From Jannaschia aquimarina (GTDB taxonomy: Bacteria > Pseudomonadota > Alphaproteobacteria > Rhodobacterales > Rhodobacteraceae), in contig NZ_JYFE01000042.1 of assembly GCF_000877395.1 (NCBI RefSeq), positions 1 to 64,000 on the forward strand: 64,000 bases of DNA. Reading direction: 5' to 3'. The position numbers were made by a program, and so were the translations under genes. How positions within the stretch are numbered: the stretch's first letter is position 1; every line of letters starts with the position of its first letter. Positions 49,441 through 64,000 of the stretch are shown here, piece by piece. The notes under the pieces were generated by a model. It was not told the DNA's origin and made no database searches. It was given only the letters and a program-made list of their open reading frames with translations.

Positions 49441-50076
49441 TCACGACAGAAGAAACGGAGTGACCGCGCAGAGATGTGCCCCGAAAGCCACGGCGATCGG
49501 GCGCGATGCAGTGTTCGACCCGTGCAGGGAAAGCCACAACCAATGCAGCAGACCGGTCCCCGAGGCGAGGGCCAAGACCCAAGATATTGCGTCCGCCCCG
49601 ACTGCGGCCCCAATACCGGCCATGAGCACGACATCGCCGGTCCCCAGACCTTCAATGCCGCGAACGGCTCTGAAAAGCGTCTGCAAGAGCCAGAGCGCGC
49701 CGCCGCCTAAAAATGCGCCAATCACAGATGGGGCGAGATCGGCCGCGAATAGGGCGGAAATAAGACTGATAAAAAGGACCGGAACCGTCCATTCCATAGG
49801 CAGCCAATGCCATTTCAAGTCGATCACCGCGAGAATCAGAAGCAGGACGAGAAGCGCGGCCTGAAGAGCCCCATGACCGCCCGACAGGTGGCCAGCCATG
49901 GCGATCGCAGACAGTCCGCCTGCAATCAGGCCGAGATGAGCCGGGCCCTGCCACCTGACCATGGCCGGTCGACCGCCGAAGAAGCAGGTCACAGCGCGAA
50001 CGGCGATCCGGGTCGGCCCCAGCCAGAATGCCACCGCGACGACAGCGAGCGCGATCAATGTCTGCGCGGCGTCCAA
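49441..50076 (-). CDS. gspO: Prepilin peptidase GspO (A24 type)
   Basis: A 211-aa aspartic membrane protease with about seven helices. The catalytic Asps lie in LAVIDLKWHWLP and GLGTGDVVLMAGIGA. The N-terminal methyltransferase domain of classical PilD/GspO is missing. It should cleave the leader peptides of GspG, H, I, J and K after the Gly before the hydrophobic helix. It lies between gspK and gspD. Confidence 0.88.
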   Translation of the reverse strand: MDAAQTLIALAVVAVAFWLGPTRIAVRAVTCFFGGRPAMVRWQGPAHLGLIAGGLSAIAMAGHLSGGHGALQAALLVLLLILAVIDLKWHWLPMEWTVPVLFISLISALFAADLAPSVIGAFLGGGALWLLQTLFRAVRGIEGLGTGDVVLMAGIGAAVGADAISWVLALASGTGLLHWLWLSLHGSNTASRPIAVAFGAHLCAVTPFLLS

Positions 50077-50907
50077 TCAAAGCTCCTTCTCGACGGAGAG
50101 GATCTCGTAGCGCATTCGACCACTGCGGAACCCGAGGCCGCGCGCGACGACCAGCGCCCGAATGCGTGCCGTCGCACCCGTGTCCAACCGGGCTTCGGCC
50201 TCGATCGTGTAGGCGGGACCGGCCCGTTCAACGAGCCAGGCGGCGGCACTGCCGAGCCGCGGCAACGGACGCCCACTCTCGCGACGGGCCACGATATCCG
50301 CCGCCGCTGCCGGACCGAGGCCCGGAACGGCCTCCAGAACCGGGAGCGGCGCGGTCGCGGGATTGATCTGAGCGTCGAAGCCATAGGTCGTCAGGTAGCG
50401 GGCGCCGATATCCGCGGTTCGGCTGTCCAGACCGGCTGCCCGCAGGATCTGCCGAACATCCGCACCGGGCGCCGCATCCGCCGCCAGGGCCTGGGCGACG
50501 TTGACGGCATCGAAGGCATCCATCCCCTCGACCTCGCCGATCCGGTTCAGGATCGGGGCAATCAACTCGGACGGCGCATGACTTATATCGACCTTCCCCC
50601 CCTCGTCCCGGATCCGGTAGGTCACGATCCCTTCGGCCATGCGCAGGGTCGCCATGGTTCCGTCGCGGGGCGTCCGAGGCTGATCCGCACCGACGCGGCC
50701 GAGATCGGCCAAGGCGACGTTCAGCCCGGCTCGCGCAAGTTCCGCCGCCCGGAGCGTGTTGACCTCGGCCCGCGCCACCAGCGCCTGCTCGCGCGCGCCG
50801 GACAGATAGGCCGCGACCGAGAGGGAAAGCGCGATCCCGATCCAGAGCACCGTGATCATGACATAGCCACGGGTCGCGGATGTGCGGCGTGTCAACGAAG
50901 GCCGCAT
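50077..50907 (-). CDS. gspK: Type II secretion minor pseudopilin GspK
   Basis: A 276-aa large minor pseudopilin. The prepilin leader ends before GYVMITVLWIGIALSLSVAA. The globular part carries the GspK pattern ELARAGLNVALADL and helix-hairpin-helix-like VLEAVPGLGPAAAADIVARR. GGAGG lies ahead of ATG 50907. It should cap the pseudopilus tip with GspI and GspJ. The start overlaps the end of gspJ by 16 bases. Confidence 0.88.
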   Translation of the reverse strand: MRPSLTRRTSATRGYVMITVLWIGIALSLSVAAYLSGAREQALVARAEVNTLRAAELARAGLNVALADLGRVGADQPRTPRDGTMATLRMAEGIVTYRIRDEGGKVDISHAPSELIAPILNRIGEVEGMDAFDAVNVAQALAADAAPGADVRQILRAAGLDSRTADIGARYLTTYGFDAQINPATAPLPVLEAVPGLGPAAAADIVARRESGRPLPRLGSAAAWLVERAGPAYTIEAEARLDTGATARIRALVVARGLGFRSGRMRYEILSVEKEL

Positions 50908-51539
50908 GTCGTATCCTCCAACGCTGCGAGGCCGCCGGCAGCGAGGCATTCGCCACTGACCGTGGGGTGGATCGCGGCGGTCAGACGACGCGTGTCCCCG
51001 ACCTCGACGGCGATCGCTGCCGGGAGGTCGTCCCCCGTCTCGTAGACCCAGACCGGATCGGGGTTTCCCGGCCTGTCGTGGAGGTACAGCAACCTGATGG
51101 GGCGCGAACTTCGGACGAGTTCTGACACCTGGCCGGCCTCCGGCACGACCCGAACGTCGCGGCGACCGGGATAGCGTGCCGCCACGAGGGCGAAGGCGTC
51201 CGCGCCACGACGCTCCACACGCAACTCCGCCACATAGCGGGAGCCACCTTCGACGACCATACGGGCCGTCGTCGCCGTCCCGATCAGGCGTCCTTGTGCC
51301 CCCTGCGCCCCACTGGTGCTGAGCCCCGCCGCCCAGGCAGAGACGGCGCGGCGCGTGGCGAGCCAATCGGCCGGACCTGTCTGCTGCGCCAGATCGCGCC
51401 GCTCGGCCGCTTGCCGCAATCCCCACGTGGCGCCGGTCAGAAGGGCGAGCGTCATCGCAGCGACCGCGAGCGCGACAAGCGCCTCTGCCAGAGCGAAGCC
51501 GCGCGCGGGGCCGCGGCGGCGAACCGGGCGCCGTCTCAT
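50892..51539 (-). CDS. gspJ: Type II secretion minor pseudopilin GspJ
   Basis: A 215-aa minor pseudopilin with the prepilin site RG/FALAEALVALAVAAMTLA, where Ala replaces the usual Thr, and Glu at +5. The C-terminal domain has the size of GspJ. The identity rests on size and order. It overlaps gspI by 4 bases. Confidence 0.8.
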   Translation of the reverse strand: MRRRPVRRRGPARGFALAEALVALAVAAMTLALLTGATWGLRQAAERRDLAQQTGPADWLATRRAVSAWAAGLSTSGAQGAQGRLIGTATTARMVVEGGSRYVAELRVERRGADAFALVAARYPGRRDVRVVPEAGQVSELVRSSRPIRLLYLHDRPGNPDPVWVYETGDDLPAAIAVEVGDTRRLTAAIHPTVSGECLAAGGLAALEDTTCGLR

Positions 51540-51928
51540 ATCGGCGCCTCGGCGTAGCGGATGGCGCGCAATGTTACCGGCGGACCGCCCGGCACGGCAA
51601 CGGAGACGGAAACGAACAGCAATTCACCGTCGCGGACCGGGCCAAGCTGCATGTCGACCGCCGGAATCGTGCCGATGACAAGATCCCAATCGTGACCGTC
51701 CAGACGGTCGTTCAGGCGCGTGCCCGGCCGCAACGGGATATCAACCCCCACCCTGTCCAGGACGGTTGCCGCAACGAGCATCCGCCCGGCCTGTGTCTCG
51801 GCGCGCCGCTCCAGCAATCCTCCGGTGGACAGCGCGGCGTAGAAGCCATTGAGAACGATCGCCGCGATAGCAAGTGCCACCAGCGACTCGATAAGCGTGA
51901 AACCTCTCTGGCTCTTGCTGCGCTTCAT
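51536..51928 (-). CDS. gspI: Type II secretion minor pseudopilin GspI
   Basis: A 130-aa protein with the canonical prepilin leader QRG/FTLIESLVALAIAAIVLNG and the family's short globular domain. It overlaps gspH and gspJ by 4 bases each. Confidence 0.85.
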   Translation of the reverse strand: MKRSKSQRGFTLIESLVALAIAAIVLNGFYAALSTGGLLERRAETQAGRMLVAATVLDRVGVDIPLRPGTRLNDRLDGHDWDLVIGTIPAVDMQLGPVRDGELLFVSVSVAVPGGPPVTLRAIRYAEAPI

Positions 51929-52341
51929 TTCGTTTCCACACGACCGGTCAGCCAGTCGAGCGTGACCACCCGGCTCGCTTCGCCCCGCCTCACGGTCAGT
52001 GTCAGGCCGTCCGATGCGCCCGACGGACGGATCACCGTACCGCCGCGCAGGGCGTCGATCCGGGTGCCGTTTCCCGGGCTGTGCCTTGCCGGACCGGCAA
52101 CAAGTGCGCCGTCGACGAATGCGACCTCGACCGCGCGGCCACTCTCCAGGGCGCGAAGCCGGGCCTGCTGGAGAAACAGCGCGACCTGCGCGGCTTCGGC
52201 CTCGACCCGGGACCGGTCACCGCCCCCGAAGGTCAGGAGCGCGATGGTCCCGACAAACATGACGACCGCCACCGCGACGAGGACCTCGACGGTCGCGAAG
52301 CCGCGGGTGGTGCGGCGTCTAGCCTTCGATGTCCGCAGCAT
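51925..52341 (-). CDS. gspH: Type II secretion minor pseudopilin GspH
   Basis: A 138-aa protein with prepilin site TRG/FATVEVLVAVAVVMFVGT and the GspH-like EAAQVALFLQQARLRALESG. ATG 52341 has GGCGGAA upstream; longer frames are shadows of gspG. It overlaps gspG by 23 bases. Confidence 0.82.
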   Translation of the reverse strand: MLRTSKARRRTTRGFATVEVLVAVAVVMFVGTIALLTFGGGDRSRVEAEAAQVALFLQQARLRALESGRAVEVAFVDGALVAGPARHSPGNGTRIDALRGGTVIRPSGASDGLTLTVRRGEASRVVTLDWLTGRVETK

Positions 52342-52771
52342 CGCCGGTTCCGCCGGGTTGCCCATCCGATCCGAGGGAGACGAGGCGGGGCCTGCCCTGC
52401 TCCAGCCTGTACTGGAACGTCCCGCCCCACGCATCGACAGGCATCTTGCCGTCCCGCAGATACGGGCCGTTCCAGCCGGGGGTCGCGCCGGGATCTGAAA
52501 CCAATGCGCCAAGCCCGGTGCCTGCTGGAGGCAATCGACCCGTGTCGATCTGGTAGATGTCGATGGCCGCCCGGATCTGGGCGATCTGCGCCTCGGTCGT
52601 CTTGACCCGTGACGATTGCAGTTGCCGCATCGCGGCGGGTCCGATCAGGCCCACGAGTAGCCCGACGATCGCAACCGCGACGAGCATCTCGACCAGCGAG
52701 AACCCGCGAGCGCCGCGGCGACGTCTAGAGCGCGATCGAGTTGACCGCGACGATGGCAGAAAAGAGCGCAT
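52319..52771 (-). CDS. gspG: Type II secretion major pseudopilin GspG
   Basis: A 150-aa major pseudopilin. After an Arg/Ser-rich leader comes RG/FSLVEMLVAVAIVGLLVGL. The GspG domain follows: IRAAIDIYQIDTGRLPPAG, GLGALVSDPGATPGWNGPYL, and DAWGGTFQYRL near the calcium site. ATG 52771 has GGAG upstream and lies inside the end of gspF (47 bases of overlap); a TTG at 52789 is the alternative. Confidence 0.92.
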   Translation of the reverse strand: MRSFLPSSRSTRSRSRRRRGARGFSLVEMLVAVAIVGLLVGLIGPAAMRQLQSSRVKTTEAQIAQIRAAIDIYQIDTGRLPPAGTGLGALVSDPGATPGWNGPYLRDGKMPVDAWGGTFQYRLEQGRPRLVSLGSDGQPGGTGDAADIEG

Positions 52772-53951
52772 AAAGGCTGACTCCGACAATGAGGCCGACC
52801 CCGACGATCAGGGCCGGCTGAAACAGGGCGAGAAAACGTTCGAGGCCGCGATCCGACGCCTCGCGCATTTCGGCAGCGGCGCGGCCGAGCATTCCGGCAA
52901 GGTCGCCGGTCTCCTCTCCGATCCGGATCATCTCGACGGCGCTAGGCGCGAGCGCGGTCATATCGCGAAGCGAGGCCGAAAGGGCTGCGCCGCCCTCGAC
53001 CTCGCGCCGTGCCGCCTCGAGTGCGCTGCGCACAGGGCCGTCCGGGAGGCCCTCGGTCACAGTCCGCAGAGCTTCGGAAAGGGTGACCTCGCGGGTCAGA
53101 AGCGCACCGAGGACGTGAAGCGTGATGGTCACCTGCCCCCGCCCGACGACATCGCGGAGCAGCGGCAGTCGGGCAGTCGCACGGCGCAGGAGCGCACCGG
53201 CCTGGCCCTTTCCGTGGAGCCACATGAAGACGCCAAGCATGGCGGCCACGCCGAACAGCAAGAGACGCCAGAGGCCGCTGACCATGGCGGACAACGCGAA
53301 GATCAGCCGACCCAGCGGCGGGATCGCGTCCATCCGGTCCTCGATCAACGGCCGGAACTGGGGGATGATCGCGACCATGATCACGCCGACGGCGATCATT
53401 GCGACGACAAGCAGGAGCGATGGATAGAGCAGTCCGGTGACGACCTTCCTGCGAAGCGCAAGCCTCTGCGTCAGCAATGACCCCGCGGTCGTCAGCGCGC
53501 CGGGCAGGTCGCCAGACGCCTCTGCCCCCCGAACCAGCGCGAGCGTCGCAGGGTCGTCGATCTTCGCGTGATCGCGCAGCCCATCGAGCAACGTGCCGCC
53601 TTCACGCATATGCGTCCGCAGTCCGACGGCAGCCTTCTGGATCGGGCCACTGCGTCCCTCGGACATGATCGTGAGCGCCCGGTCGAGGTCGATGCGGCTG
53701 TCGGTCAGTTTTCCCAGTCGGGTGACGAAATCCGCGCGCGCGCGCGCAGACATCGCAGTTCTGCGGCCCCACGGCGTGCGCCGGGTCGTCCGCGTCGTCG
53801 CCTGGGGGTTGGCGATCAGGTCCACCGGCAACAGCCCATCGGCGCGCAGACGGCGGAGGGCATCGACCTCGTCTACGGCGGCTACCGTCCCGTCCCGGCG
53901 CCTCCCCTCGGCATCGCGGGCCTTGTAGCGAAAGGCGGAAAGGTCGCTCAT
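52725..53951 (-). CDS. gspF: Type II secretion inner-membrane platform GspF
   Basis: A 408-aa platform protein with two homologous cytoplasmic domains, each with three membrane helices. Marks are FRYKARDAEGRRRDGTV at the N terminus, LVRGAEASGDLPGALTTAGS and IRIGEETGDLAGMLGRAA, with a helix YPSLLLVVAMIAVGVIMVAI. It starts 3 bases after gspE and overlaps gspG. Confidence 0.95.
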   Translation of the reverse strand: MSDLSAFRYKARDAEGRRRDGTVAAVDEVDALRRLRADGLLPVDLIANPQATTRTTRRTPWGRRTAMSARARADFVTRLGKLTDSRIDLDRALTIMSEGRSGPIQKAAVGLRTHMREGGTLLDGLRDHAKIDDPATLALVRGAEASGDLPGALTTAGSLLTQRLALRRKVVTGLLYPSLLLVVAMIAVGVIMVAIIPQFRPLIEDRMDAIPPLGRLIFALSAMVSGLWRLLLFGVAAMLGVFMWLHGKGQAGALLRRATARLPLLRDVVGRGQVTITLHVLGALLTREVTLSEALRTVTEGLPDGPVRSALEAARREVEGGAALSASLRDMTALAPSAVEMIRIGEETGDLAGMLGRAAAEMREASDRGLERFLALFQPALIVGVGLIVGVSLYALFSAIVAVNSIAL

Positions 53952-53954
53952 CCG

Positions 53955-55637
53955 TCAGATCCAGAACCGGCCGGCGCCCAGGACGCGGACCAGTTCCTCC
54001 AGGGTCGTGCGACCGCTTGCGAGCAGCGCAAGACCCTCGAGCCCGAGCGTCCGACCGCCCTGGACGCCTGCCCCGTCTTCGGTCGCCACCTCGAACAGCG
54101 CCGCACGGCCTGCATATCCCGTCCGATTGCAGCGAGGGCAGCCGGTAGGCAGGCGGGGCGACCATCTTTCGACAGGACCGAGCGACGGATCGACCGCCGC
54201 GAACTTGGCGAGCAACGTGCGGAGCCGGGGCCGCCGGGCAAGATCGACAGGCGCGGCACAATCGCAGAGAGTCCGAACGAGCCGTTGAGCACCCACGACA
54301 CGCAGAACGGAGGTCAGCAGGTAGTCCGGCACGCCCATATCGGTCAGCCGCATCACCGCTTCGGTTGCGCGATTGGTATGCAGCGTCGACAGGACGAGAT
54401 GTCCGGTCAGTGCCGCACGAACCGCCAGCTCGGCCGTCTCGGCGTCCCGGATTTCACCGACCATGATGACGTCGGGGTCATGGCGCAGGACCGTGCGCAG
54501 GGCAGCCGCGAAGGTCCAGCCGAGCTCCGCCTTCACTTCGATCTGCACGAGACCGGCGGTCTGGATCTCGACCGGGTTCTCGATCGTCACGATCTTCCGG
54601 CCGATCTCGTTCAATTCGGCCAGGGCGGCGTGCAGGGTCGTCGTCTTGCCGCTGCCGGTCGGGCCGGTCATCAGGATCAGGCCATTGGGCTGGCGGAGGG
54701 CCTGTCTCAAGCGAGCGGCGACGGCGCCGGGCAAGTGCAGCCCGCCGAGGCTGGCGCGCTTCTGCGCATTGTCCAGCAGGCGAAGCACGAGTGTTTCGCC
54801 CAGCACGGTCGGCGCGCTGGCGACACGGATATCGATCCGTCGGCCCGCGATTTGCTGGCGGATGCGACCGTCCTGCGGCAGGCGCCGTTCCGAGATGTCC
54901 ATCCCCGCGAGAATCTTTAGACGCGAGACGACGCCTTCATAGAGATGCCTCTCCATCGCGGCCGTCTCGGACAGGATGCCATCGAGCCGCAGGCGAATGC
55001 GCGGGCCGCCTTCGAGCATTTCGAGATGGATGTCCGTCGCTCCCGCTTCGACAGCCTGCGCGAAGAGCCGGTCCAGGTACCTTACGGTTGGCGCGTTGTT
55101 CGCCAGTTCCGTCAGCCGATCCGCGTCGAGGTCGCCGTCGGACAGGGCGATCGACAGGACTTCTTCGGGCGCGGCCTCCTCCGCCGAGGCGCTTCGGTCG
55201 AGCGCCGTCTCGATGTCGCGGTCCGTCGCCACGGCGTAGCGGATACCCGGCCCGTAGATCATCGCGAGAGCCTGCCTCACGCGGCGCGCCAGAGGGTTCG
55301 CAATGGCAATGAGCGGGGCCGCGCCATCGGCAGCCGCTTCGAGCAGTGCGATCCCGTTGCGCCGCATATATTCCGAGGACAACCGATCATCTTTCGGCAG
55401 CCGTACGGGGAAGTCGTCGAGGGCAAGCAGCGGCAGGTCATGATCCTGCGCCATGATGCCCGCCCAGTCTGTCTGGGAGACGAGCCCGAGCCGATCCAGA
55501 ACAAGGCGTACGGGCTGGCCGCTGGAGGAACTGAGATGCCTGACTTTCGCCACATCCGCTGGCGTCAGACGGCCTTCCGCCAGCAGACGTTGAGGGATCT
55601 CGACATCCTCAAGATGGACCGTGACGACTCGACTCAT
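53955..55637 (-). CDS. gspE: Type II secretion ATPase GspE
   Basis: A 560-aa ATPase that powers pseudopilus assembly. N-terminal N1/N2 domains (about 1-180) lead to NAPTVRYLDRLFAQAVEAGA. Walker A is MTGPTGSGKTTTLHAAL, the Asp box is IVTIENPVEIQTAG, Walker B is VIMVGEIRDAETAELAVRAA, and the His box is ALTGHLVLSTLHTNRA. A Cys cluster (LCDCAAPV ... GCPRCNRTGYAGR) binds zinc. ATG 55637 starts the N1 domain; the longer frame is unconserved. First gene of the minus operon. Confidence 0.96.
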   Translation of the reverse strand: MSRVVTVHLEDVEIPQRLLAEGRLTPADVAKVRHLSSSSGQPVRLVLDRLGLVSQTDWAGIMAQDHDLPLLALDDFPVRLPKDDRLSSEYMRRNGIALLEAAADGAAPLIAIANPLARRVRQALAMIYGPGIRYAVATDRDIETALDRSASAEEAAPEEVLSIALSDGDLDADRLTELANNAPTVRYLDRLFAQAVEAGATDIHLEMLEGGPRIRLRLDGILSETAAMERHLYEGVVSRLKILAGMDISERRLPQDGRIRQQIAGRRIDIRVASAPTVLGETLVLRLLDNAQKRASLGGLHLPGAVAARLRQALRQPNGLILMTGPTGSGKTTTLHAALAELNEIGRKIVTIENPVEIQTAGLVQIEVKAELGWTFAAALRTVLRHDPDVIMVGEIRDAETAELAVRAALTGHLVLSTLHTNRATEAVMRLTDMGVPDYLLTSVLRVVGAQRLVRTLCDCAAPVDLARRPRLRTLLAKFAAVDPSLGPVERWSPRLPTGCPRCNRTGYAGRAALFEVATEDGAGVQGGRTLGLEGLALLASGRTTLEELVRVLGAGRFWI

Positions 55638-55826
55638 CCCGTCAGACCAAAGCCGACTTGGAAACGTCGCGCCGCTCAATCGCCCGATTCGCCGCTGATG
55701 CCGCCAAGTCAGCCGAGAGGGCGGGCAACGCATTACGACCGATACGGTATCCAATAGTCAGCATCGCCGGGGATTGCCTTGGATGACGGGAAAGCAGGAG
55801 CGGTTAGACCCCGCGATTCTGGTTAA

Positions 55827-55842
55827 AATTTGACGTCAAATT
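55827..55842. promoter_or_regulatory. Perfect 16-bp palindrome AATTTGACGTCAAATT
   Basis: A perfect palindrome of low GC in the 290-bp divergent region between gspE (minus) and the DUF1800 gene (plus). Its position suggests an operator that controls both halves of the secretion system. The regulator is unknown. Confidence 0.6.
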
Positions 55843-55927
55843 CGCGCACATCTTTCGCCGCCTCCCTGCCACAAGTTTGGGACAAAAACGCCTCATCGAG
55901 ACATTGATTGCGTCCCGGGAGAGATGG

Positions 55928-58666
55928 ATGAACGATTTCAGACTTGCGTTTTCGCCGCTGGCCGCAGCCGCGATGACAGCGCTCGCGTTGCCAGCCTTTG
56001 CACAGCAGATGACGGGTGACGCGGCAGCACCTCAGAAGGTGGCGGCTGCTGCCGAAGATCAGCTCGTTCCGGCCCCCGATGCCGGATCCTCTGCGGTCGT
56101 GGGCACCTCGTTCTACCGCAAGCTCACCGTCCCGGTCGCTGGCATGTATGCGGTGCGCGCCCCCGCCAACAGCGGCGTCCGTCTGCTCGTGAACGGCAAG
56201 CTGCTGCTGGACGCGACGGGTCAGCGGCGCGCCGATCTGGGCGAGGATATCACCGCGCTGACCCGCCTCGACGCCGGGGACCATGTCATCGAGGTGCAGG
56301 GGATCGAAGAAGGGGAAGGAACGTGGCGCTCCATCTCCGCCTCGGCTGTCGGGACACAACCGATCGGCATCCTTGACGCGACGGTTCCCATCGAACTCAT
56401 GGAAGCGCATCAGATCGCGAGTTCTCGCGCGGCGATCGGCTCCATCGCTTCGACGTCATTCGCGAGCGGCACACGGCCCGTAACGCCCGCGGGCAACGGG
56501 CTGGTCCGCGGCACTTTCCTCCTTGGTGGCGGATCGTCCCGTGCAGTCGGTGGAGTTGGCGGTATGTCGGCCGCGTCGGGGGGCGGAACGGCTGGGTCCG
56601 GAGGAAGCGGCCAGATGCAGATGGCCCGCGCCGACACGGACCGGATGTCGTCCGGTGGCTCCTCGTCAGGCCGTTCCTCCGGTGGATCCGGCGGGGGCAC
56701 CACGACCTTTGCAGCGGCACCATCAACTGGCGGAGGCACGACCGGCGGCGGGACGGGTGGGACCCCGACGACGCCCGGCGGCACACCCACCGCCCCGGGC
56801 GGCACGCCTACCGCACCGGGGGGCACCCCAACGCCGACCCCTACCCCCACACCCACGCCAACACCGACACCCACACCCCCACCGACCGGTACTCCGGATC
56901 CCGCGCCCGGCGCGGCGCTTCCCAGCCCGCTCTCTCCGCCGGCGAACCCGGTCGTGACGCAGGCCGTCCAACTGACGGTCGCCGGCGATGCCGAAGGGAA
57001 CGTGCCCGCAACCGGAACCACCCTGTTCGGCGCGGTGATGGACAACTCGATGTTCGACGTCGTCGACGTTGCAATCGGGCCCTCGAGCCGGACGACGCGA
57101 GTGGATGTCGGGGCCGAGACGGGGCAATTCGCAGTCCGTCTGTTCGCCGAAGATTTCGCATCGGGCGAGCCGGTCACGGTCACGCTGACGGGGGCATCCT
57201 CTGCCTCCGACGAAGTCGAGGCGACGCCGGTCACCTATACGGTCAACGGCGTCGCTTCCACGCCAGGGATAACCCAGGCGCTCAGCCGTCTCACCTGGGG
57301 GCCGACGCCCGAGCTCTACGCCCGTCTCAGGGCGATCGGCTTCGCGGCTTTCGTCGAGGAGCAACTCAACCCCGAGAGCATTGATGACCGTGCCTTCGAG
57401 GCAATGAACCCGGAAGACCTGCTGAACCCGACGACCACGTCGGAGTCGCAGATGTTCCAGTCCTTGATGAACTACGACCTTGCCAACGCCGCCTACAGCG
57501 AACGGCAGTTGCAGGACGTGCTGGGCCATTTCTGGGCCAACCACTTCCACGCCTCGACCAAGGGCACCGATATCCGGCAGCAGAACATCACGGATCGGCA
57601 ATTCTTCCGCGATAATGCGTTCGGGAACTTCGAGGATCTGCTGCTCTACTCCGCGCGGAGCCCGTTGATGTCGCAGTTCCTCGACAACGATCAGAACCGC
57701 CGGGGCAACATCAACGAGAACTACGGCCGCGAGATCCTCGAGCTTTCGACCGTCGGCGTGAATGCGGGCTACGGCCCGGAAGATGTGATCGCCGTCTCGC
57801 GGGTCTTCACCGGCTGGCGCTACGAGCGGACCAATCCCGATGCCGAGGACGTGGCGCGCGAGTACCAGTTCGTCTTCGATCCCGGCCGGCACGACGAGGA
57901 AGACAAGGTGATCCCGTTCCTCGGCACCACGATAGCCGGGCGTTCCGGAGAGGCCGGGGTGCAGGAAGGCGAGGAATTGATCGCGATCCTCGCACAGAAC
58001 TCCAACACCCAGTCCTATGTCTGCGGGAAGCTGGTCCAGCTTCTGGTCGCCGATACGCCGCCACAGGCCTTCGTGGATATCTGCGTCCAGTCCTGGCAGG
58101 CGACAGGCGGGGAGATTCGCGAGATCGTGCGCGCAATCCTGACGGAACCGAGCTACGCGACGAGTGTCGAGTTCGCCCGGAACAAGGCGAAGACCCCCTT
58201 CGAATACGCCGTCTCGGCCATCCGTGCCTTCGGCGCGCGGCCGAACCCGGGTGAAGAAGGCAACTTCTACCGCCGCTTTCGGGATACGTTCGAACAGGCG
58301 GGCCAGAACATCCTGCGGTTTCCCGTCCCGACCGGCCTGCCGGAAGCGTCCGCGGCCTGGGTCAACTCGGCCACGATGATCGCGATGTACCGCCAGATGA
58401 CGGAAGTCGCCGAGAGGCCCGGCAATTACGGCATCGACATCCTCGCCGACCTGGAGGCCGCCGGTCTCGAGACCGCTGAAGAAGCCGCCGCCTACCTGCT
58501 GACCGTCGCCACCGCCGATCATTTCACGCTGGAAGAGTTCGAGGCCATCGTCTCCGTCCTCAAGGGTGAAGACGGGATCTTCGACCCCCGTCGGACCGAT
58601 GAGGCGCGAGCCGTCGAACGTGCGCTCGGCCTGATGGTCGTCGCCCCCAGCTTCCAGCTTCAGTGA
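55928..58666 (+). CDS. DUF1800 family secreted protein with PA14-like and PT-rich regions
   Basis: A 912-aa protein with a signal peptide (cleavage near PAFAQQ). Residues about 50-130 are a PA14-like beta domain. Residues about 190-330 are Gly/Ser-rich, then Pro-Thr repeats. Residues about 350-430 are an Ig-like domain. Residues about 450-912 are the DUF1800 domain (QDVLGHFWANHFHASTKG, NYGREILELSTVGVNAGYG). The enzymatic role is unknown. It is the first gene of the plus operon that also holds gspL, M and C, so it is a likely secreted substrate. Confidence 0.9.
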   Translation: MNDFRLAFSPLAAAAMTALALPAFAQQMTGDAAAPQKVAAAAEDQLVPAPDAGSSAVVGTSFYRKLTVPVAGMYAVRAPANSGVRLLVNGKLLLDATGQRRADLGEDITALTRLDAGDHVIEVQGIEEGEGTWRSISASAVGTQPIGILDATVPIELMEAHQIASSRAAIGSIASTSFASGTRPVTPAGNGLVRGTFLLGGGSSRAVGGVGGMSAASGGGTAGSGGSGQMQMARADTDRMSSGGSSSGRSSGGSGGGTTTFAAAPSTGGGTTGGGTGGTPTTPGGTPTAPGGTPTAPGGTPTPTPTPTPTPTPTPTPPPTGTPDPAPGAALPSPLSPPANPVVTQAVQLTVAGDAEGNVPATGTTLFGAVMDNSMFDVVDVAIGPSSRTTRVDVGAETGQFAVRLFAEDFASGEPVTVTLTGASSASDEVEATPVTYTVNGVASTPGITQALSRLTWGPTPELYARLRAIGFAAFVEEQLNPESIDDRAFEAMNPEDLLNPTTTSESQMFQSLMNYDLANAAYSERQLQDVLGHFWANHFHASTKGTDIRQQNITDRQFFRDNAFGNFEDLLLYSARSPLMSQFLDNDQNRRGNINENYGREILELSTVGVNAGYGPEDVIAVSRVFTGWRYERTNPDAEDVAREYQFVFDPGRHDEEDKVIPFLGTTIAGRSGEAGVQEGEELIAILAQNSNTQSYVCGKLVQLLVADTPPQAFVDICVQSWQATGGEIREIVRAILTEPSYATSVEFARNKAKTPFEYAVSAIRAFGARPNPGEEGNFYRRFRDTFEQAGQNILRFPVPTGLPEASAAWVNSATMIAMYRQMTEVAERPGNYGIDILADLEAAGLETAEEAAAYLLTVATADHFTLEEFEAIVSVLKGEDGIFDPRRTDEARAVERALGLMVVAPSFQLQ
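56752..56893 (+). repeat. Pro-Thr low-complexity repeat in the DUF1800 gene
   Basis: A run of GGCACACCCACCGCCCCGG-like units (PGGTPTA repeated three to four times) is followed by an alternating PT tract of about eight units. The DNA is a near-microsatellite of CCNACN and could vary in copy number by slippage. It encodes an extended interdomain linker. Confidence 0.8.
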
Positions 58667-58704
58667 CCGGCTGCCACCGGATTTCGAACGAAAGGGTATT
58701 CAAG

Positions 58705-60000
58705 ATGACCAATCGCCGTGAATTCCTCACCTCACTTGCCGCGGCGGCCACGGCCGCCGGCGTCGCCGGTGCCCCGAAATTCTCGTTTGCGCAGAGCGTT
58801 GGCGGAAAGACCCTGATCAAGGTCTTCATGCGTGGCGGAGCCGACGGGCTGCACCTCTTCCCGAAATACAACGACCCCGCCTATTACGCCTACCGTCCCG
58901 ATATCGGGATCGAGCCGCCCAGCAACGATATCAACTCGGCACTCGATCTCGGGATGCCCGAACGTGGCATGAACCCTAACCTCGAGCTCCTGATGGAGAT
59001 CTGGGATGCGGGGAACATGATGGTCGCGCCCGCCACGTCCTTCGCGGGCGCGAACCGGTCGCATTTCGACTGCCAGCGCTGGATCGGGACGGGCGCAAGA
59101 AACAACCTGATCGACGGCTACCTGAACCGCTACATGCAAAACGTCGTGGGCATCGAGCACCCGCTGCGCGGCATGGTCGCAGGCAAGACCTCGATCAGCA
59201 CGGAGATCCGAGGGGCCGTCAAGGTCCCGGCGATCCAGGACAATAACGGGTTCTCGCTGCAGAACGACGACCTGTGCGAGGGGCAAGGCTGCGCTGACAA
59301 CCAGCTTACCGAGATCATGCGCGAGATCTCCTCGCACGACGTCGACGTCGCGGCCGTCGAAGGCGCGATCCGCGAGACGCAGCTGATCATGCTGGATGCC
59401 ATCGCCGAGGTGCAGGCAGCCGGCGTCGACTATACGCCGGATGCCGGTGGGCTGACCTACAACAACACCGATCTGGGCCGTGGCCTGCGGATGTGCGCGC
59501 AGATGCTGAAGGCGGGGGTCCCGCTGGAAGTCGCCGCGGTGGATTGGAATATCGGCTGGGACACTCATTCGAACCAGATCGCAGACGGGACCAACCGCTT
59601 CACCGATCAGGAGAAGGGCTACCATCGCAACATGGCGCGCGGGGCCAACGACTTCCTGACCTTCTTCCGCGACATGGGTCCCGCCATGCAGGATGTGGTG
59701 GTCCTCGTCGGCAGCGAGTTCGGGCGCACGAAGAAGCAGAATGGCTCCGTCGGGACCGACCATGGCGAAGGCGGCGCCTGGTTCGCCTTCGGCGGCCCGG
59801 TCCAACGGACGATCGCCCCCGACGTGACGACCATCGATGACAGCGTGGTGGAGCGGAACTGGCTGCCCACCGTCATCAGCTATCGCGACATCGTGGGCGA
59901 AATCATGGTCCGTCACATGGGAATGTCCGAACAACTCATCTCGACCGTGTTTCCGGGCCACACCTTTACCGATCATCGCCTTATGGCTGCCATGGCCTGA
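58705..60000 (+). CDS. DUF1501 family protein with Tat signal
   Basis: A 431-aa protein of the alkaline-phosphatase-like DUF1501 family. The N terminus NRREFLTSLAAAATAAGVAG is a twin-arginine signal, so it should cross the inner membrane folded. Family marks are KVFMRGGADGLHLFPKYND, VGSEFGRTKKQNGSVGTDHG and the late HTFTDHRLM. DUF1800/DUF1501 pairs are common. Here they lie inside a type II secretion operon, which takes folded periplasmic proteins. ATG 58705 has GAAAGGG upstream. Confidence 0.92.
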   Translation: MTNRREFLTSLAAAATAAGVAGAPKFSFAQSVGGKTLIKVFMRGGADGLHLFPKYNDPAYYAYRPDIGIEPPSNDINSALDLGMPERGMNPNLELLMEIWDAGNMMVAPATSFAGANRSHFDCQRWIGTGARNNLIDGYLNRYMQNVVGIEHPLRGMVAGKTSISTEIRGAVKVPAIQDNNGFSLQNDDLCEGQGCADNQLTEIMREISSHDVDVAAVEGAIRETQLIMLDAIAEVQAAGVDYTPDAGGLTYNNTDLGRGLRMCAQMLKAGVPLEVAAVDWNIGWDTHSNQIADGTNRFTDQEKGYHRNMARGANDFLTFFRDMGPAMQDVVVLVGSEFGRTKKQNGSVGTDHGEGGAWFAFGGPVQRTIAPDVTTIDDSVVERNWLPTVISYRDIVGEIMVRHMGMSEQLISTVFPGHTFTDHRLMAAMA

Positions 60001-60040
60001 CGGCACTCTCCACAGCTGAGGGGTTCGGGTCCGGGAGAGG

Positions 60041-61111
60041 ATGGGCGTGACAGACAGTGCAGGAACAGCCGGGAGCCGGGTCCTTGACGTACCCGGCTCA
60101 CCGCGGCGTTGGCTGACGCGACTGCGCAACCTGATCACGCAGGGGCTGATCCTTGCGCATGACGCTCCGTCCGATGATCGTCCGCTCAGCGAGATCTACA
60201 TCGAGATCGCGGACCACGGTCCGCGTCTTCGGGACGCCCAGTCCGATATCTCGCCCCCGCTGGATGACGGAGCGCTGGCCGACCTCTCGGCAGCCGGGAT
60301 CCGCGACGTCGATCTGGTCTTCGCCGGAGAGAGCTGTCTCGAAATCTCGTTCGGGCTTCCCGATGCGCCGCTGCACGAGCTGCGCGCCATGATCGAGAGC
60401 GAAATCCAGTACCGCTCGCCCTTCTCGGCGGATGCGAGCGTCTCGTTCTGGACCGCAGAAGAAAAGCCTGACGGCCGCTGGCGCATCACCGCCGCCGTCA
60501 CCCTTCGCGCGCCGACCATGGACCTTGTCGCGCGGCTTGCCCGCCACGGCCTTGCCGTGGGGACCGTCCGGTGGAACGGCGGCACCAAGACCTTCGCTGC
60601 CCGGCCCGACTGGACGCAAGAGCGCACCGAGGGAAAGGAAATGGGCTGGAAAGCCGCGCTTCGCGGTCTGTCGCCCGTCTGGAAAGCGACCGTGATCGGC
60701 GTCGCGATGCTAAATCTCTCCGCGATGCTTCTCCTCGCGCAGACCACGTTCCGGCATTCCGCTGTCAGCCAACAAGCGGACAAGGCCCGGCTCGAACTGT
60801 CCCGCACGGCGCAAGCCACGGCGACCCTGCGCGCGCTCGGTGACGCGCGGGCCATGTCGACAGAGCGTCTGGCGCTGACCGGCGTTCTGGCAGACCTCCT
60901 GCCCGACGGCGTCTGGCTCGATCAGCTTCTGATCGAGGATGTGACCGTCACGCTGGTCGGGTTCGGGCCCTCCGCCGCCGAAGTTACACGGCTGCTGACA
61001 AGCTTGCCCCAGATCACCGATATCCGGTTCGGCTCGCCGGTCACGCGCGACAACAGCCAGGGGCTGGAACGCTTCAGGATCCTCGCCACGCTCTCCGGAC
61101 CGGTCGAATGA
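60041..61111 (+). CDS. gspL: Type II secretion protein GspL
   Basis: A 356-aa bitopic protein. Residues about 1-210 are a cytoplasmic actin-like part that would contact GspE. A membrane helix (about 217-240, VIGVAMLNLSAMLLLAQ) and a periplasmic ferredoxin-like domain of the PilN/GspL kind (DGVWLDQLLIEDVTVTLVGF) follow. A GTG two codons in (60047) has better ribosome spacing than ATG 60041. The identity is from order and topology. Confidence 0.78.
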   Translation: MGVTDSAGTAGSRVLDVPGSPRRWLTRLRNLITQGLILAHDAPSDDRPLSEIYIEIADHGPRLRDAQSDISPPLDDGALADLSAAGIRDVDLVFAGESCLEISFGLPDAPLHELRAMIESEIQYRSPFSADASVSFWTAEEKPDGRWRITAAVTLRAPTMDLVARLARHGLAVGTVRWNGGTKTFAARPDWTQERTEGKEMGWKAALRGLSPVWKATVIGVAMLNLSAMLLLAQTTFRHSAVSQQADKARLELSRTAQATATLRALGDARAMSTERLALTGVLADLLPDGVWLDQLLIEDVTVTLVGFGPSAAEVTRLLTSLPQITDIRFGSPVTRDNSQGLERFRILATLSGPVE

Positions 61112-61641
61112 GCGACTTTCATTTTTCCCGCCCCAAGCTGCCGAGGCAGGTCCTGACCGTCCTGTTTGCGGGCTTCGTCCTCTTCGGGGTCGGGGCTACC
61201 GGCCTCACCTTGTCGGTCGCGAATGGCAAAGCGGATGCGATCGCCGACATGCGCCATACCATCGCGCGGGCGGAAGCCCGCACCGCGCCGGCCCAGCCGA
61301 GCGGCGAGACGAGTGAGCATTTCTATAAAGGCACCACGCCGCAGCTGGCTCAGGCAGCGTTGCAGACCGATCTGCAAACCCTGGCGGAAGCCCATGACAT
61401 CGCCGTCGAAGTGATGCGCGCGGACGAGATCGAGCAAATGGACGGGATGGTGCGTCTGAACCTGACGATGACCGCCGTCGTGCCCGAAGCGGAGCTTGGC
61501 GGCTTCCTGCAATCAGTCTCCGGACGCGAGCCGATCCTCGTCGTCGAGGATCTCAGCCTGCGACGCGCGCGGGCAAGCCGGTCGGGATCCGACCGGAGGG
61601 TGGCGATGACGATGAAGCTCTATGGGTTGCTGCCGCGATGA
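61108..61641 (+). CDS. gspM: Type II secretion protein GspM
   Basis: A 177-aa protein with one N-terminal membrane helix, a coiled stretch (MRHTIARAEARTAPAQP), and a ferredoxin-like periplasmic domain (MVRLNLTMTAVVPEAELGGF). It overlaps gspL and the next gene by 4 bases each. The fold and place fit GspM, which pairs with GspL; sequence similarity in this family is low. Confidence 0.75.
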   Translation: MSDFHFSRPKLPRQVLTVLFAGFVLFGVGATGLTLSVANGKADAIADMRHTIARAEARTAPAQPSGETSEHFYKGTTPQLAQAALQTDLQTLAEAHDIAVEVMRADEIEQMDGMVRLNLTMTAVVPEAELGGFLQSVSGREPILVVEDLSLRRARASRSGSDRRVAMTMKLYGLLPR

Positions 61642-62087
61642 AGACGATCTCTGCACTCGTCCCCAAGGCGATTGTCGTCGGCTTCGGTCTCACCGCCGCT
61701 GCGATCTGGTTGCCGAAGTCGGGTCCCGCTCCGGTTGACTTGGATGGACCTGTGACCGACCTCTCATACGACGTCCGGCAAGCCGAGACGCGCTTGGCCG
61801 AGCTCGCCAGGCACGCCGCCGAGCGCCCGCTTTTCCAGGCCAGTCGCCGGCCGGAGCAGGCATCCACGCCGGCTCCGCCTCCTCCGGCCCCTACCCTGAT
61901 CCTTGTCGGTGTTCTGTCGGACGCCGACAGTCGGATGGCGCTCGTGCGCCTGTCGAACGCGCCGACACTCTACAGACTGGCGGCGGGAACCACCTTCGGC
62001 CCCTGGAGCATCCTTTCCATAGGCCCCGACACCATTCGCGTCTCCAAGGACGACGCGCCACCTTTCGAGATGCGGATCAGGCGCTGA
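61638..62087 (+). CDS. GspC-like type II secretion protein (no PDZ)
   Basis: A 149-aa protein with one N-terminal helix, the pattern AERPLFQASRRP, a Pro-rich spacer, and a small beta domain (TLILVGVLSDADSRMALVRL ... LAAGTTFGPWSILSIGPD) like the homology region of GspC or PilP. There is no room for a PDZ or coiled-coil tail. It should connect the inner-membrane platform to the secretin. It is the last gene of the plus operon. Confidence 0.72.
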   Translation: MKTISALVPKAIVVGFGLTAAAIWLPKSGPAPVDLDGPVTDLSYDVRQAETRLAELARHAAERPLFQASRRPEQASTPAPPPPAPTLILVGVLSDADSRMALVRLSNAPTLYRLAAGTTFGPWSILSIGPDTIRVSKDDAPPFEMRIRR

Positions 62088-62628: not shown

Positions 62629-63057
62629 TGCGGTCACGAACAGGCTGATAGGGCGTCCTTGACTGTCGCAGAAGGCGGGCGGCTTCGTATTCACGCCGTC
62701 CTTGGCCCGTCCGATCAGGCGCCCGTTTTCCCTCTTTGACGACCAGGCTGGACGTCGTGCGGTGCCTTCAAGTAGGTGGCAGCGATCATTGCGATCCTTC
62801 TCCCTCCGTGTTCGGCAGCCAGTCCGGCCATCATCCTCGCAAAGATCCCGCTGTCGCTCCAACGCTTCCGGCGGTTATGAAGCGTGGTGTAGGTGTCATA
62901 CTCATTTGGCGCGCCGCGCCAGCGCAACCCACTGCGATTTATCATGACAATCCCACTCAGGACGCGCCGGTCATCGACGCAAGGACGGCCATGGATCTTG
63001 GAACGCTGGGTCTCTAGACGCGCCAACCAAGCATCACTCAGCCAAAAAATCAGACAT
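62629..63057 (-). pseudogene. Truncated IS5-type transposase remnant
   Basis: The N-terminal half of an IS5-family (IS427-like) transposase: WLSDAWLARLE, GRPCVDDRRVLSGIVMINRS, GLRWRGAPNEYDTYTTLHNR, then IAATYLKA. After a frameshift it continues with GRLIGRAKDGVNTK and FCDSQGRPISLFVTA. The reading frame also breaks in the T-run right after the likely start (63057). The catalytic C-terminal half is absent: similarity stops at about 62629, next to the IS3 fragment. Confidence 0.8.
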
Positions 63058-63283
63058 TTCACCTCCCGTCTTCGGACAATGAATGACGCCCTTCCCAACC
63101 ACTCGATGGATCCTGAGTCCGGCCTTTACCAGGTGCGCCGCCCGGACCGAGGCCAGCTGTTCACTCTTACCCTCGGATTTGGTTAGGAGTCCGCGGTGAG
63201 GGCTTACAAGCATCCCCTACCCTGAGAGTTCGACCCTGGACGAAGACGATAATTATTGGACCGACCTTTCGCCCGCGACGTCG

Positions 63284-64000
63284 ATGGAGACCGGCGGCCG
63301 GATAGCGACGACGTGGATCGATGGCCTTGAACCCGTTCCGTCTGGACCGGGCCGGTCTGGGCCGTGGGTTCCGCAGTCGCTGACCGACGTGCTCTTTGAC
63401 TGCCCCGAGGCTGAGGGCGAGACCTACTTCCTGCTAGATGCAGCGGCAGTTCCGTATCTTTCGGACCTGCTACAGAGTACGACCGATTGCTTTCAGTCGC
63501 TCTTCCAAGACGAAGCCGCGGAGGAACTCGGGGACGCAGCCCCTTGGCTCGCCCGAGTGCAGCCGGATGGCGCTCTCATGCGATACGCGTTCACCGAAGG
63601 CGAGGCGGCATCGTGGCATCTCTGGTCCAAGCCCGCAGGCGTTTTCTTGCGCGGTCACGGAGGGTTGGGGGCTATACGGAGCGTCTTGCGGCGGCTGACC
63701 CGCGTGAGGACCGAGGACGGCGCGTGGTTTTTCCTTCGGCTGGCAGATCCGGCGACGCTGGCTCGATATCTTGATGGGCCAGCCGCGCACGGAACGTGTC
63801 GCGCACAGGTCTTCGCGGACGGGATTGTGCGACGCGTCATCTGTCGATCTAGGGCAACCGCCCAAGTTTTCGCTTGGGACGGCCCGCCTCCGGCGCGGAC
63901 GCCGGTCATCCTCTTGAACGAGGAACGGCTGGATTTCCGTCTGATGATCTATGAACGACAAGCCGTCGAAATCGAAGCTCGGCTGCGGCGCAGCTTCCCG
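63284..64000 (+). CDS. DUF4123 domain protein, 5' part (runs off the window)
   Basis: An open frame of 239 codons that continues past the right edge. It has the DUF4123 pattern: ETYFLLDAAAVPYLSDLL, SLFQDEAAEELGDAAPWLA, FLRGHGGLGAIRSVLRRLTR and VRTEDGAWFFLRLADPATLA. DUF4123 proteins are adaptor chaperones that load effectors onto VgrG in type VI secretion. The ATG at 63284 is the first start after an in-frame TGA; no good ribosome site is seen, so the N terminus may be damaged by the nearby IS events. Confidence 0.75.
   Translation, partial: METGGRIATTWIDGLEPVPSGPGRSGPWVPQSLTDVLFDCPEAEGETYFLLDAAAVPYLSDLLQSTTDCFQSLFQDEAAEELGDAAPWLARVQPDGALMRYAFTEGEAASWHLWSKPAGVFLRGHGGLGAIRSVLRRLTRVRTEDGAWFFLRLADPATLARYLDGPAAHGTCRAQVFADGIVRRVICRSRATAQVFAWDGPPPARTPVILLNEERLDFRLMIYERQAVEIEARLRRSFP

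What the first reader, a model, noticed from the sequence alone, without database searches (positions are those of the whole stretch)
53955..62087. Type II secretion system built around a DUF1800/DUF1501 pair
gspE-F-G-H-I-J-K-O-D diverge from DUF1800-DUF1501-gspL-M-C. The DUF1501 protein has a Tat signal and the DUF1800 protein a signal peptide, both compatible with type II substrates. Being co-transcribed with the inner-membrane platform suggests a dedicated system whose cargo is this pair. The biochemical role of DUF1800/DUF1501 is unknown.
Basis: partly seen in the sequence, partly recalled or inferred. Interest (0 to 1): 0.75.

Follow-up and report, generated by a model that had tools for sequence, protein, structure and literature searches.

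The report
Secretion machine with a built-in protein pair
A bacterial protein-export machine of a known kind sits together with genes for two proteins of unknown function, and because the same partnership appears in several bacterial groups, the pair is probably what this machine carries to the outside of the cell.

Summary
The window carries a type II secretion system (T2SS): gspE-F-G-H-I-J-K-O-D on one strand; DUF1800, DUF1501, gspL, gspM, gspC on the other. The linkage is not accidental. In 22 of 26 loci encoding close relatives of this DUF1501 (at least 40% identity) the pair is next to gsp genes, in several gene orders. Among 394 genomes of the family, high-scoring matches to this DUF1501 type and to this GspL type fall in the same four; in one of them (G001) the two are unlinked. 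Four Gemmatimonadota loci show a separate linkage. 'Dedicated T2SS with this pair as cargo' is the best reading, but inferred; nothing was tested experimentally.

It is not a general rule: most DUF1800/DUF1501 pairs seen lie away from gsp genes. The family's common unlinked pair has an export signal on DUF1501 only, suggesting a complex exported by Tat. The T2SS-linked branch has a signal on each partner and no leader cysteine, but so do many unlinked pairs of other phyla, so leaders do not prove secretion. An unlinked copy lies in a polysaccharide cluster; I favour a surface-glycan phospho- or sulfohydrolase, unproven. New variant of a known kind.

The parts
55928..58666 (+). DUF1800 protein, 912 aa: Sec-type leader, PA14-like domain (about residues 60-130), Gly/Thr-Pro linker, a short conserved stretch without family match, then DUF1800 (residues 451-911)
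   Evidence: Pfam PF08811 E 5e-97; PA14 below cut-off, E 0.011 on the N-terminal piece; start checked
58705..60000 (+). DUF1501 protein, 431 aa, twin-arginine leader without cysteine
   Evidence: PF07394 E 4.5e-17; NCBIfam TAT_signal_seq E 0.031, below cut-off; leader read by eye
60041..61111 (+). gspL
   Evidence: PF05137 PilN E 1e-9; 13-row alignment A6 of relatives
61108..61641 (+). gspM (XpsM type)
   Evidence: PF10741 E 5.9e-13; NF040576 E 1.8e-17 over cut-off
61638..62087 (+). gspC-like, 149 aa
   Evidence: no family match; homologues in the same place in relatives
53955..55637 (-). gspE ATPase
   Evidence: PF00437 E 4.5e-108, MshEN E 1.2e-10
52725..53951 (-). gspF
   Evidence: PF00482 E 6.2e-40
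52319..52789 (-). gspG major pseudopilin (TTG start uncertain)
   Evidence: PF08334 E 6.3e-26
51925..52440 (-). gspH-like pseudopilin (start uncertain)
   Evidence: weak NCBIfam XpsH/GspH matches, below cut-offs
51536..51928 (-). gspI-like pseudopilin
   Evidence: N_methyl E 4e-8
50892..51539 (-). gspJ-like pseudopilin
   Evidence: prepilin-like N terminus by eye and position; homologues in relatives
50077..50895 (-). gspK
   Evidence: NF037980 GspK E 1.2e-4, below cut-off; HHH_3
49441..50076 (-). gspO prepilin peptidase
   Evidence: PF01478 E 3.8e-12
46984..49353 (-). gspD secretin, lipobox-like leader, SPOR-like C terminus
   Evidence: TIGR02517 402.6 bits over cut-off; SPOR E 0.0086 on the C-terminal piece, below cut-off here, over cut-off in pieces of two relatives
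55638..55927 (.). divergent intergenic region, 290 bp
   Evidence: coordinates; no Pho-box-like site with up to 4 mismatches, no sigma-70-like site

Best explanation
This is an Xps-like type II secretion system whose dedicated cargo is the DUF1800/DUF1501 pair encoded with its platform genes. Proposed steps. (1) DUF1501 folds in the cytoplasm and crosses the inner membrane by Tat; DUF1800 crosses by Sec. (2) The two form a complex in the periplasm. (3) The GspC-L-M-E-F platform and the pseudopilus push the complex through the secretin GspD. (4) At the cell surface the pair acts on extracellular glycan, probably as a metal-dependent phospho- or sulfohydrolase (DUF1501) with DUF1800 as partner; the PA14-like domain and Thr-Pro linker of DUF1800 would bind the glycan or help recognition by the T2SS. 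Shown by sequence: gene content, order, leaders, domains, conservation and co-occurrence. Inferred: complex formation, secretion, substrate and activity.
For: Conservation: 22 of 26 loci with a DUF1501 of at least 40% identity are next to gsp genes. Gene orders differ while the pair stays (E divergent from pair-L-M-C; pair-L-M-C-E-F-G..; pair-E-F-G..). In a 32-row GspE tree the linked alphaproteobacterial rows form one clade, 97/95 support, 21 linked and 1 unlinked (G001). Co-occurrence in 394 family genomes: matches to GspL of this type (347-459 bits; next 84) and to DUF1501 of this type (704-849 bits; next 119) fall in the same four genomes, G000, G001, G054, G463; 3 of the 4 are linked. 0 of 13 other T2SS clusters viewed in the family carry the pair within the stretch fetched. 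Separate linkage: 4 Gemmatimonadota loci with D-E-pair or E-F-G-pair, whose DUF1501 is nested among unlinked Gemmatimonadota. Cargo rather than machine part: three genomes (those of L045, L049, L050) hold a second pair without gsp genes in its 10-kb flanks besides the linked one, and G001 has its pair of this type on another contig. Glycan lead: the G001 pair lies among UDP-Glc/GDP-Man dehydrogenase, glycosyltransferases, phosphomannomutase, sulfotransferase and ABC transporter genes; PMC5122149 reports DUF1800/DUF1501 with bacterial chitin synthase genes (passages).
Against: No experiment. 44 of the 59 family genomes with DUF1800 have no T2SSG match, and most pairs in genomes that have both are not linked. 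The co-occurrence is partly built in: the search alignments contain sequences of the four genomes, three of the four are physically linked, and G001, G054 and G463 are the same contigs as L051, L053 and L036; only G001 tests the link without proximity. Four linked loci stand against 23 Gemmatimonadota loci in the set, several of them on short contigs. Leaders do not separate secreted from periplasmic pairs: of 62 other loci read (mostly other phyla, unlinked) 33 also have a signal on both partners, 39 of 46 RR leaders of other phyla lack a Cys, and the 4 unlinked paralogues of this branch lack it too. The alkaline-phosphatase-like role of DUF1501 rests on recall plus invariant D/H/S residues: no solved relative was found, hhalign to PhoA found nothing. 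No Pho box. GspE scores no higher with the GspE model than with the PilB model (423 and 427 bits, both below cut-off).
Confidence: 0.63

Rival explanations
1. The pair is an accessory part of this T2SS (assembly, anchoring or quality control) rather than cargo; it stays in the periplasm or at the outer membrane next to GspD.
For: It lies directly upstream of gspL, M and C. Where the pair is absent from the locus, in G001, a 139-aa leader-bearing protein related to the DUF1800 N-terminal domain lies between gspL and gspE, as a machine-related part might.
Against: Extra copies without gsp genes in their flanks, many pairs in genomes with no T2SSG match, and other T2SS clusters in the family that lack it.
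Confidence: 0.16
2. Gene neighbours by descent: a block that travels together without a functional link.
For: The linked alphaproteobacterial GspE proteins fall in one clade and the DUF1501 proteins of this type in another, so most of the loci may be one event inherited; the type is patchy, 4 of 394 family genomes.
Against: The gene order was rearranged while the pair stayed; there is a separate linkage in Gemmatimonadota; G001 keeps both parts on separate contigs.
Confidence: 0.11
3. The pair is exported only to the periplasm, and the T2SS carries other, unlinked substrates.
For: Unlinked family pairs look like one-signal Tat pairs, often with a Cys in the leader, and occur in genomes without a T2SSG match; two-signal pairs without a T2SS beside them are common in other phyla.
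Against: The conserved place beside gspL-M-C, the separate Gemmatimonadota linkage, and, in Rhodobacteraceae members of this branch, extra N-terminal domains on DUF1800.
Confidence: 0.1

Closest known systems
Hxc type II secretion system of Pseudomonas with its adjacent exoprotein gene (Psp/DING in P. fluorescens SBW25)
   Same: A T2SS cluster with the gene of a signal-peptide protein beside it; Psp in the medium fell to under 15% in an hxcR mutant (PMC2225411, abstract and passages read). That LapA is the Hxc substrate in P. aeruginosa is recalled.
   Different: Different cargo family; one protein, not a pair; psp is reported to have its own promoter, whereas here the pair is close-packed with gspL-M-C. 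Hxc sequences were not compared here.
Tat plus T2SS two-step secretion in Pseudomonas aeruginosa (PlcH, PA3910, PA4140)
   Same: Folded Tat substrates handed to a T2SS (PMC4899797, passages read).
   Different: General Xcp machine with several substrates; DUF1501/DUF1800 not mentioned in the passages seen.
Bacterial chitin-synthase operons with DUF1800 and DUF1501
   Same: The same two protein families as neighbours, with a Tat motif noted on DUF1501 (PMC5122149, passages read).
   Different: No T2SS named in the passages seen; no chitin synthase noticed beside the window's pair.
Xps-type T2SS (XpsM)
   Same: GspM over the NCBIfam XpsM cut-off.
   Different: gspD here has a SPOR-like C-terminal domain, and a pair of foreign genes lies with the platform genes.
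Tat hitchhiker complexes (hydrogenases, formate dehydrogenases)
   Same: One partner carries the signal and the other has none, as in the family's common unlinked DUF1800/DUF1501 pairs (definition in PMC10924467, passages read).
   Different: No cofactor known; complex formation not shown; the T2SS-linked branch has two signals.

Membership tests
Type II secretion system | secretin GspD with N0 domain | tested here: met
   TIGR02517 over cut-off; PF00263, PF21305
Type II secretion system | ATPase GspE and platform GspF, L, M, C | tested here: met
   E, F, L, M by Pfam, M also by NCBIfam over cut-off. The GspE equivalog cut-off is not reached (423 of 630 bits) and PilB scores 427 of 676, so the GspE name rests on the cluster; C only by position and relatives
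Type II secretion system | major pseudopilin GspG, minor pseudopilins, prepilin peptidase | tested here: met
   G and O over Pfam cut-offs; K by weak models; H, I, J by N-methylation motif, weak models and order
Dedicated T2SS with cognate cargo (Hxc-like) | cargo gene in the cluster, conserved with it | tested here: met
   22 of 26 loci; same four of 394 genomes
Dedicated T2SS with cognate cargo (Hxc-like) | cargo leaves the cell only if the T2SS works | not testable with these tools
   needs mutants
DUF1800 (PF08811) | full-length domain match | tested here: met
   profile 2-419 of 419, E 5e-97
DUF1501 (PF07394) | domain match over cut-off | tested here: met
   62.7 of 27 bits, E 4.5e-17, best stretch profile 229-330 of 390; 25 columns invariant in 73 sequences
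Alkaline phosphatase superfamily | fold and metal-binding residues | tested here: inconclusive
   invariant D47, S119-H120, D286, H288, D352-H353 fit the pattern recalled for the superfamily; hhalign to PhoA none; no PDB relative; structure prediction switched off
PA14 domain | Pfam gathering score | tested here: not met
   16.0 bits against 24 on the N-terminal piece; best E 0.0031 among 67 DUF1800 proteins; so called PA14-like only
SPOR domain on GspD | Pfam gathering score | tested here: inconclusive
   window piece 16.8 of 21 bits, not met; pieces of two relatives 25.7 and 23.8, met; whole proteins lower
Tat hitchhiker pair (unlinked DUF1800/DUF1501) | signal on one partner only, joint export | tested here: inconclusive
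   signal split seen in the family's common type, but 33 of 62 other loci have two signals; joint export not testable here

The most novel reading that the evidence does not exclude
DUF1800 and DUF1501 are two subunits of one envelope enzyme that acts on cell-surface glycan and is exported in different ways: as a Tat complex in which only one subunit carries the signal (the common Rhodobacteraceae type), with separate signals to the periplasm, or out of the cell by a T2SS of its own, a link that arose at least twice (or once, very early, with many losses). In the Rhodobacteraceae T2SS branch the PA14-like domain of DUF1800 would serve recognition by the T2SS; the stand-alone copy of that domain in the T2SS locus of G001 is the clue.
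Probability: 0.27. Interest if true: 0.75.

Novelty: new variant of a known kind. Interest (0 to 1): 0.58.

Why it matters
DUF1800 and DUF1501 are common (86 of 299 sampled Pseudomonadota genomes have DUF1800) and I found no assigned function; the held library has 4 papers naming DUF1800 and 10 naming DUF1501. A T2SS devoted to them gives a direct handle: a gspD or gspE mutant should accumulate the pair in the periplasm, and its phenotype should show what the pair does outside. The one-signal pattern of the common family type also gives a simple test of whether the two proteins are one complex.

Tried and rejected
Profile searches of the PDB found no relative of either family at E up to 1. hhalign of the DUF1501 profile with E. 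coli PhoA, and of the DUF1800 profile with an 839-aa protein of L063 that I took by eye for a planctomycete-type cytochrome protein, gave only chance pieces; with a single sequence on one side this is a weak test. A phosphate-starvation system like Hxc was considered: no Pho-box-like site in the window's divergent region, 3-4 mismatch sites in 4 of 9 relatives, so not supported.

A general DUF1800-T2SS rule was rejected. In a Pseudomonadota sample DUF1800 is in 86 of 299 and T2SSG in 174 of 299; both are in 45 by my count of the lists (about 50 expected if independent). In the 37 of the other 44 genomes whose best T2SSG position was listed, none had DUF1800 within 20 kb (nearest about 32 kb, G319); 7 best positions, and further T2SSG matches of some genomes, were not listed. 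Of the 12 stretches fetched, one is linked (L127), seven show other T2SS clusters (L128-L134) and four show no cluster or a cut one (L135-L138). The Fisher tests used 14 other T2SS clusters; a recount gives 13, so I do not lean on them.

The leader argument was weakened on recheck. I first read the missing leader cysteine of the linked branch as a loss tied to secretion; 39 of 46 RR leaders of other phyla and the 4 unlinked paralogues lack it too, so it may be a gain in the common family type. Two-signal pairs are also common without linkage (33 of 62). The automatic leader rule scored 7 of 20 linked alphaproteobacterial DUF1800 as 'none' because it reads only 110 residues before the domain; I saw a leader by eye in 15 linked loci, while in L032, L035, L040 and L043 the true start is not clear from the printed piece and L038, L039 and L073 are cut. 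The rule also mis-set some DUF1501 starts (L142, L143, L147, L164, L183), which one search shows to have RR leaders, and counts frames that look wrong or cut (L155, L190). Pairs of the family list that I did not fetch: G022:C302 and G004:C292:404745, besides short fragments. L006 and L007, family pairs of other types, have two signals.

Loci L101 and L102 have D-E about 5 kb before DUF1800 with other genes between; I did not count them as linked in the DUF1501 tree, though the GspE tree labelled them linked. L035, with only gspL behind the pair, was labelled unlinked in the DUF1501 tree. Both trees carry long-branch warnings (among them L052 with L073 in the GspE tree, L058 beside the alphaproteobacterial clade in the DUF1501 tree).
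Full report
What is there. The window contains one type II secretion system in two divergent gene groups separated by 290 bp. On the minus strand are gspE, F, G, H, I, J, K, O and D (55637 down to 46984); on the plus strand DUF1800, DUF1501, gspL, gspM and gspC (55928-62087). Families were assigned by Pfam and NCBIfam; starts and gaps were checked. GspM passes the NCBIfam XpsM cut-off and GspD the GspD cut-off; GspE passes neither the GspE nor the PilB equivalog cut-off. GspD has a lipobox-like leader, as do, by eye, 27 of 28 alphaproteobacterial GspD rows printed (L133 unclear; L003 and L053 are one contig), so this does not mark the linked type. The DUF1800 protein is long (912 aa): Sec-type leader, a PA14-like domain (below Pfam's cut-off), a Thr-Pro-rich linker, a short conserved stretch, and the DUF1800 domain at the C terminus. 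The DUF1501 protein has a twin-arginine leader.

Is the linkage real. A scan of the genome collection with a three-row DUF1501 alignment kept the best 80 of 84 loci. An ORF and phmmer annotation (arrangement printed) shows the following. Of the 26 loci with DUF1501 at 40% identity or more (best segment), 22 have the pair next to gsp genes. Seventeen show the window's arrangement or a contig-cut part of it. L035 keeps pair-gspL but has other genes, not gspE, upstream. Two Neomegalonema loci have pair-L-M-C-E on one strand, L053 on through F-G to D. L052 (Hyphomicrobiales) has E divergent and gspO behind gspC. L073 (Rhizobiaceae group) has pair-E-F-G-H-I-J-K. The four unlinked are L045, L049, L050 and L051. 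The first three belong to assemblies that also hold a linked copy (L039, L055, L041, same assembly names). L051 is the contig of G001, whose T2SS is elsewhere (L016).

Co-occurrence. In 394 genomes of the window's family (393 genera), an alignment of this GspL type gives strong matches (347-459 bits) in four: G000, G463, G001, G054; nine more are weak, the best at 84 bits. The DUF1501 alignment gives 704-849 bits in exactly the same four; the next is 119 bits. Three of the four are linked; G001 has both but apart. Cautions: the alignments contain sequences from these genomes, which raises their scores; three of the four are also among the 26 loci; and physical linkage makes the two dependent, so the 1e-9 computed for independence is not a fair P value. 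G001 is the informative case. None of 13 other T2SS clusters viewed in the family carries the pair within the stretch fetched. The window's own second pair, on contig C17, has no gsp gene in 19 kb. The same-genus genome G593 has neither at the thresholds used.

A separate linkage. Four Gemmatimonadota loci have the pair directly behind T2SS genes: L068, L088 and L106 (..D-E-pair) and L098 (E-F-G-pair), out of 23 Gemmatimonadota loci in the set, several on short contigs. Best NCBIfam matches there are T2SS models (gspD, gspE, GspF, GspK, XpsM), below their cut-offs; gspG of L098 is over its cut-off. In the DUF1501 tree (84 rows) these four nest among unlinked Gemmatimonadota pairs, away from the alphaproteobacterial clade (26 rows, 100/100); starred branches force at least five changes of the label, some of them from the duplicates and from L035. 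In the GspE tree (32 rows) the linked alphaproteobacterial systems form one clade (97/95) that also holds the unlinked G001 system; Gemmatimonadota are apart. Two gains, or one very old linkage with many losses, both fit.

What is not general. DUF1800 is in 59 of 120 family genomes, DUF1501 in 60, T2SSG in 19; 15 genomes have DUF1800 and T2SSG, and in only 2 (G000, G054) are they close. In a Pseudomonadota sample of 299 genomes no other co-location was seen among readable positions (details under tried and rejected). So linkage belongs to particular T2SS clades, not to the protein families as such.

Leaders. In 52 unlinked family loci read for this purpose, DUF1800 starts practically at its domain: a home-made rule found no leader in 46 of 52; the other six I judged by eye to be ORF extensions or domain-start stretches. 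DUF1501 has an RR leader in 50 of 50 read by the rule (two of these frames look wrong or cut), with a Cys after the RR in 46. In six other loci (L005, L008, L009, L011, L063, L099) the split is the reverse: DUF1800 has the RR leader and DUF1501 starts at its core. One signal per pair is what a Tat hitchhiker complex looks like (definition in PMC10924467, passages). In the T2SS-linked alphaproteobacterial branch both have leaders where the N terminus can be read (15 loci by eye), and 0 of 21 DUF1501 leaders have a Cys; nor do the 4 unlinked paralogues. In the four linked Gemmatimonadota loci both have Tat-type leaders. But these features are not special to linkage: of 62 other loci, mostly unlinked and of other phyla, 33 have a signal on both partners, 19 on one, 10 could not be resolved; and only 7 of 46 RR leaders of other phyla have a Cys. 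So the leaders allow secretion without proving it, and the hitchhiker pattern is a feature of part of the family only. Whether the Cys is a true lipobox is not known.

The PA14-like domain. A profile from three sequences finds it in 21 of 147 DUF1800 proteins (19 distinct): all are Rhodobacteraceae of this branch, linked or paralogous. It is not found in the linked L035, L052, L053/L003 and L054. G001's T2SS locus has, where the pair would be, a 139-aa protein with a leader and this domain alone (BLASTP E 9e-10 to the DUF1800 protein of the same genome, 7e-6 to the window's). It may be a remnant of a lost DUF1800 gene or a working part. This is the reason to suspect a role in T2SS recognition; it is not proof.

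Function. Two glycan clues: G001's unlinked pair lies among a UDP-glucose/GDP-mannose dehydrogenase, glycosyltransferases, a phosphoglucomutase/phosphomannomutase, a sulfotransferase, a Wzy_C-like protein (below cut-off) and an ABC transporter; and PMC5122149 (passages read) reports DUF1800 and DUF1501 genes in conserved operons with bacterial chitin synthases. The other three unlinked paralogues show no such cluster by eye. DUF1501 has 25 invariant columns in 73 diverse sequences, including D47, S119-H120, D286, H288 and D352-H353, which from memory fits a metal-dependent hydrolase of the alkaline phosphatase superfamily; this could not be tested by structure. I commit to a surface-glycan phospho- or sulfohydrolase as the likeliest role, at lower confidence than the cargo claim.

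Literature. 'DUF1800' with 'type II secretion' and 'DUF1501' with 'type II secretion' each gave 0 papers in the held library of openly licensed PubMed Central papers; both DUFs together gave 2. A T2SS cluster with its own cargo gene is known (Hxc and Psp, PMC2225411), as is Tat-to-T2SS export (PMC4899797). So the kind is known; the cargo pair, its place with the platform genes and the Gemmatimonadota linkage are, by these searches, unreported in that library.

Noticed in passing
window 46984-47250: GspD carries a SPOR-like C-terminal domain; over Pfam's cut-off in the C-terminal pieces of relatives L016 and L191, weak in the window; no SPOR match in L003, L019, L020. PMC9239104 (passages) says only Legionella LspD was known to have a SPOR domain among T2SS secretins, near its N terminus.
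   Followed up: partly
L139-L190, L005, L008, L009, L011, L063, L099: Many unlinked DUF1800/DUF1501 pairs, above all in the window's family, carry an export signal on one partner only, and which partner varies: a Tat hitchhiker pattern.
   Followed up: partly
L139-L190 DUF1501 leaders: 46 of 50 leaders of the common family type have a Cys after the RR, against 0 of 21 in the T2SS-linked branch and 7 of 46 in other phyla; function unknown.
   Followed up: partly
L016:8283-8702: A 139-aa leader-bearing protein, homologous to the DUF1800 N-terminal domain, sits alone between gspL and gspE in G001.
   Followed up: partly
L035:2163-5537: The DUF1800 frame begins with a region with four CxxCH haem motifs, then a lipobox-like leader; a fusion or an assembly fault in a MAG contig of coverage 3.2.
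   Followed up: partly
L051 (G001:C20): Unlinked pair inside an exopolysaccharide cluster with a sulfotransferase.
   Followed up: yes
L050:12871-19176: A 2101-aa RTX-repeat protein lies downstream of an unlinked pair.
   Followed up: no
G000:C20:99832-100059 (L112): A weak second match to the PA14-like domain (E 4e-5) in a long repeat protein of the window's own genome, beside what look like type I secretion genes.
   Followed up: partly
window 62715-63098: IS4/5-family transposase-like ORF (DUF4096) just beyond gspC.
   Followed up: no
window 63284-64000: DUF4123 protein running off the window end; from memory such proteins are type VI secretion adaptors.
   Followed up: no
A5 members: Two DUF1800 relatives match Pfam PSD2 and two match PSD5 weakly (best E 0.02 and 0.056), a possible distant link to planctomycete families.
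   Followed up: partly
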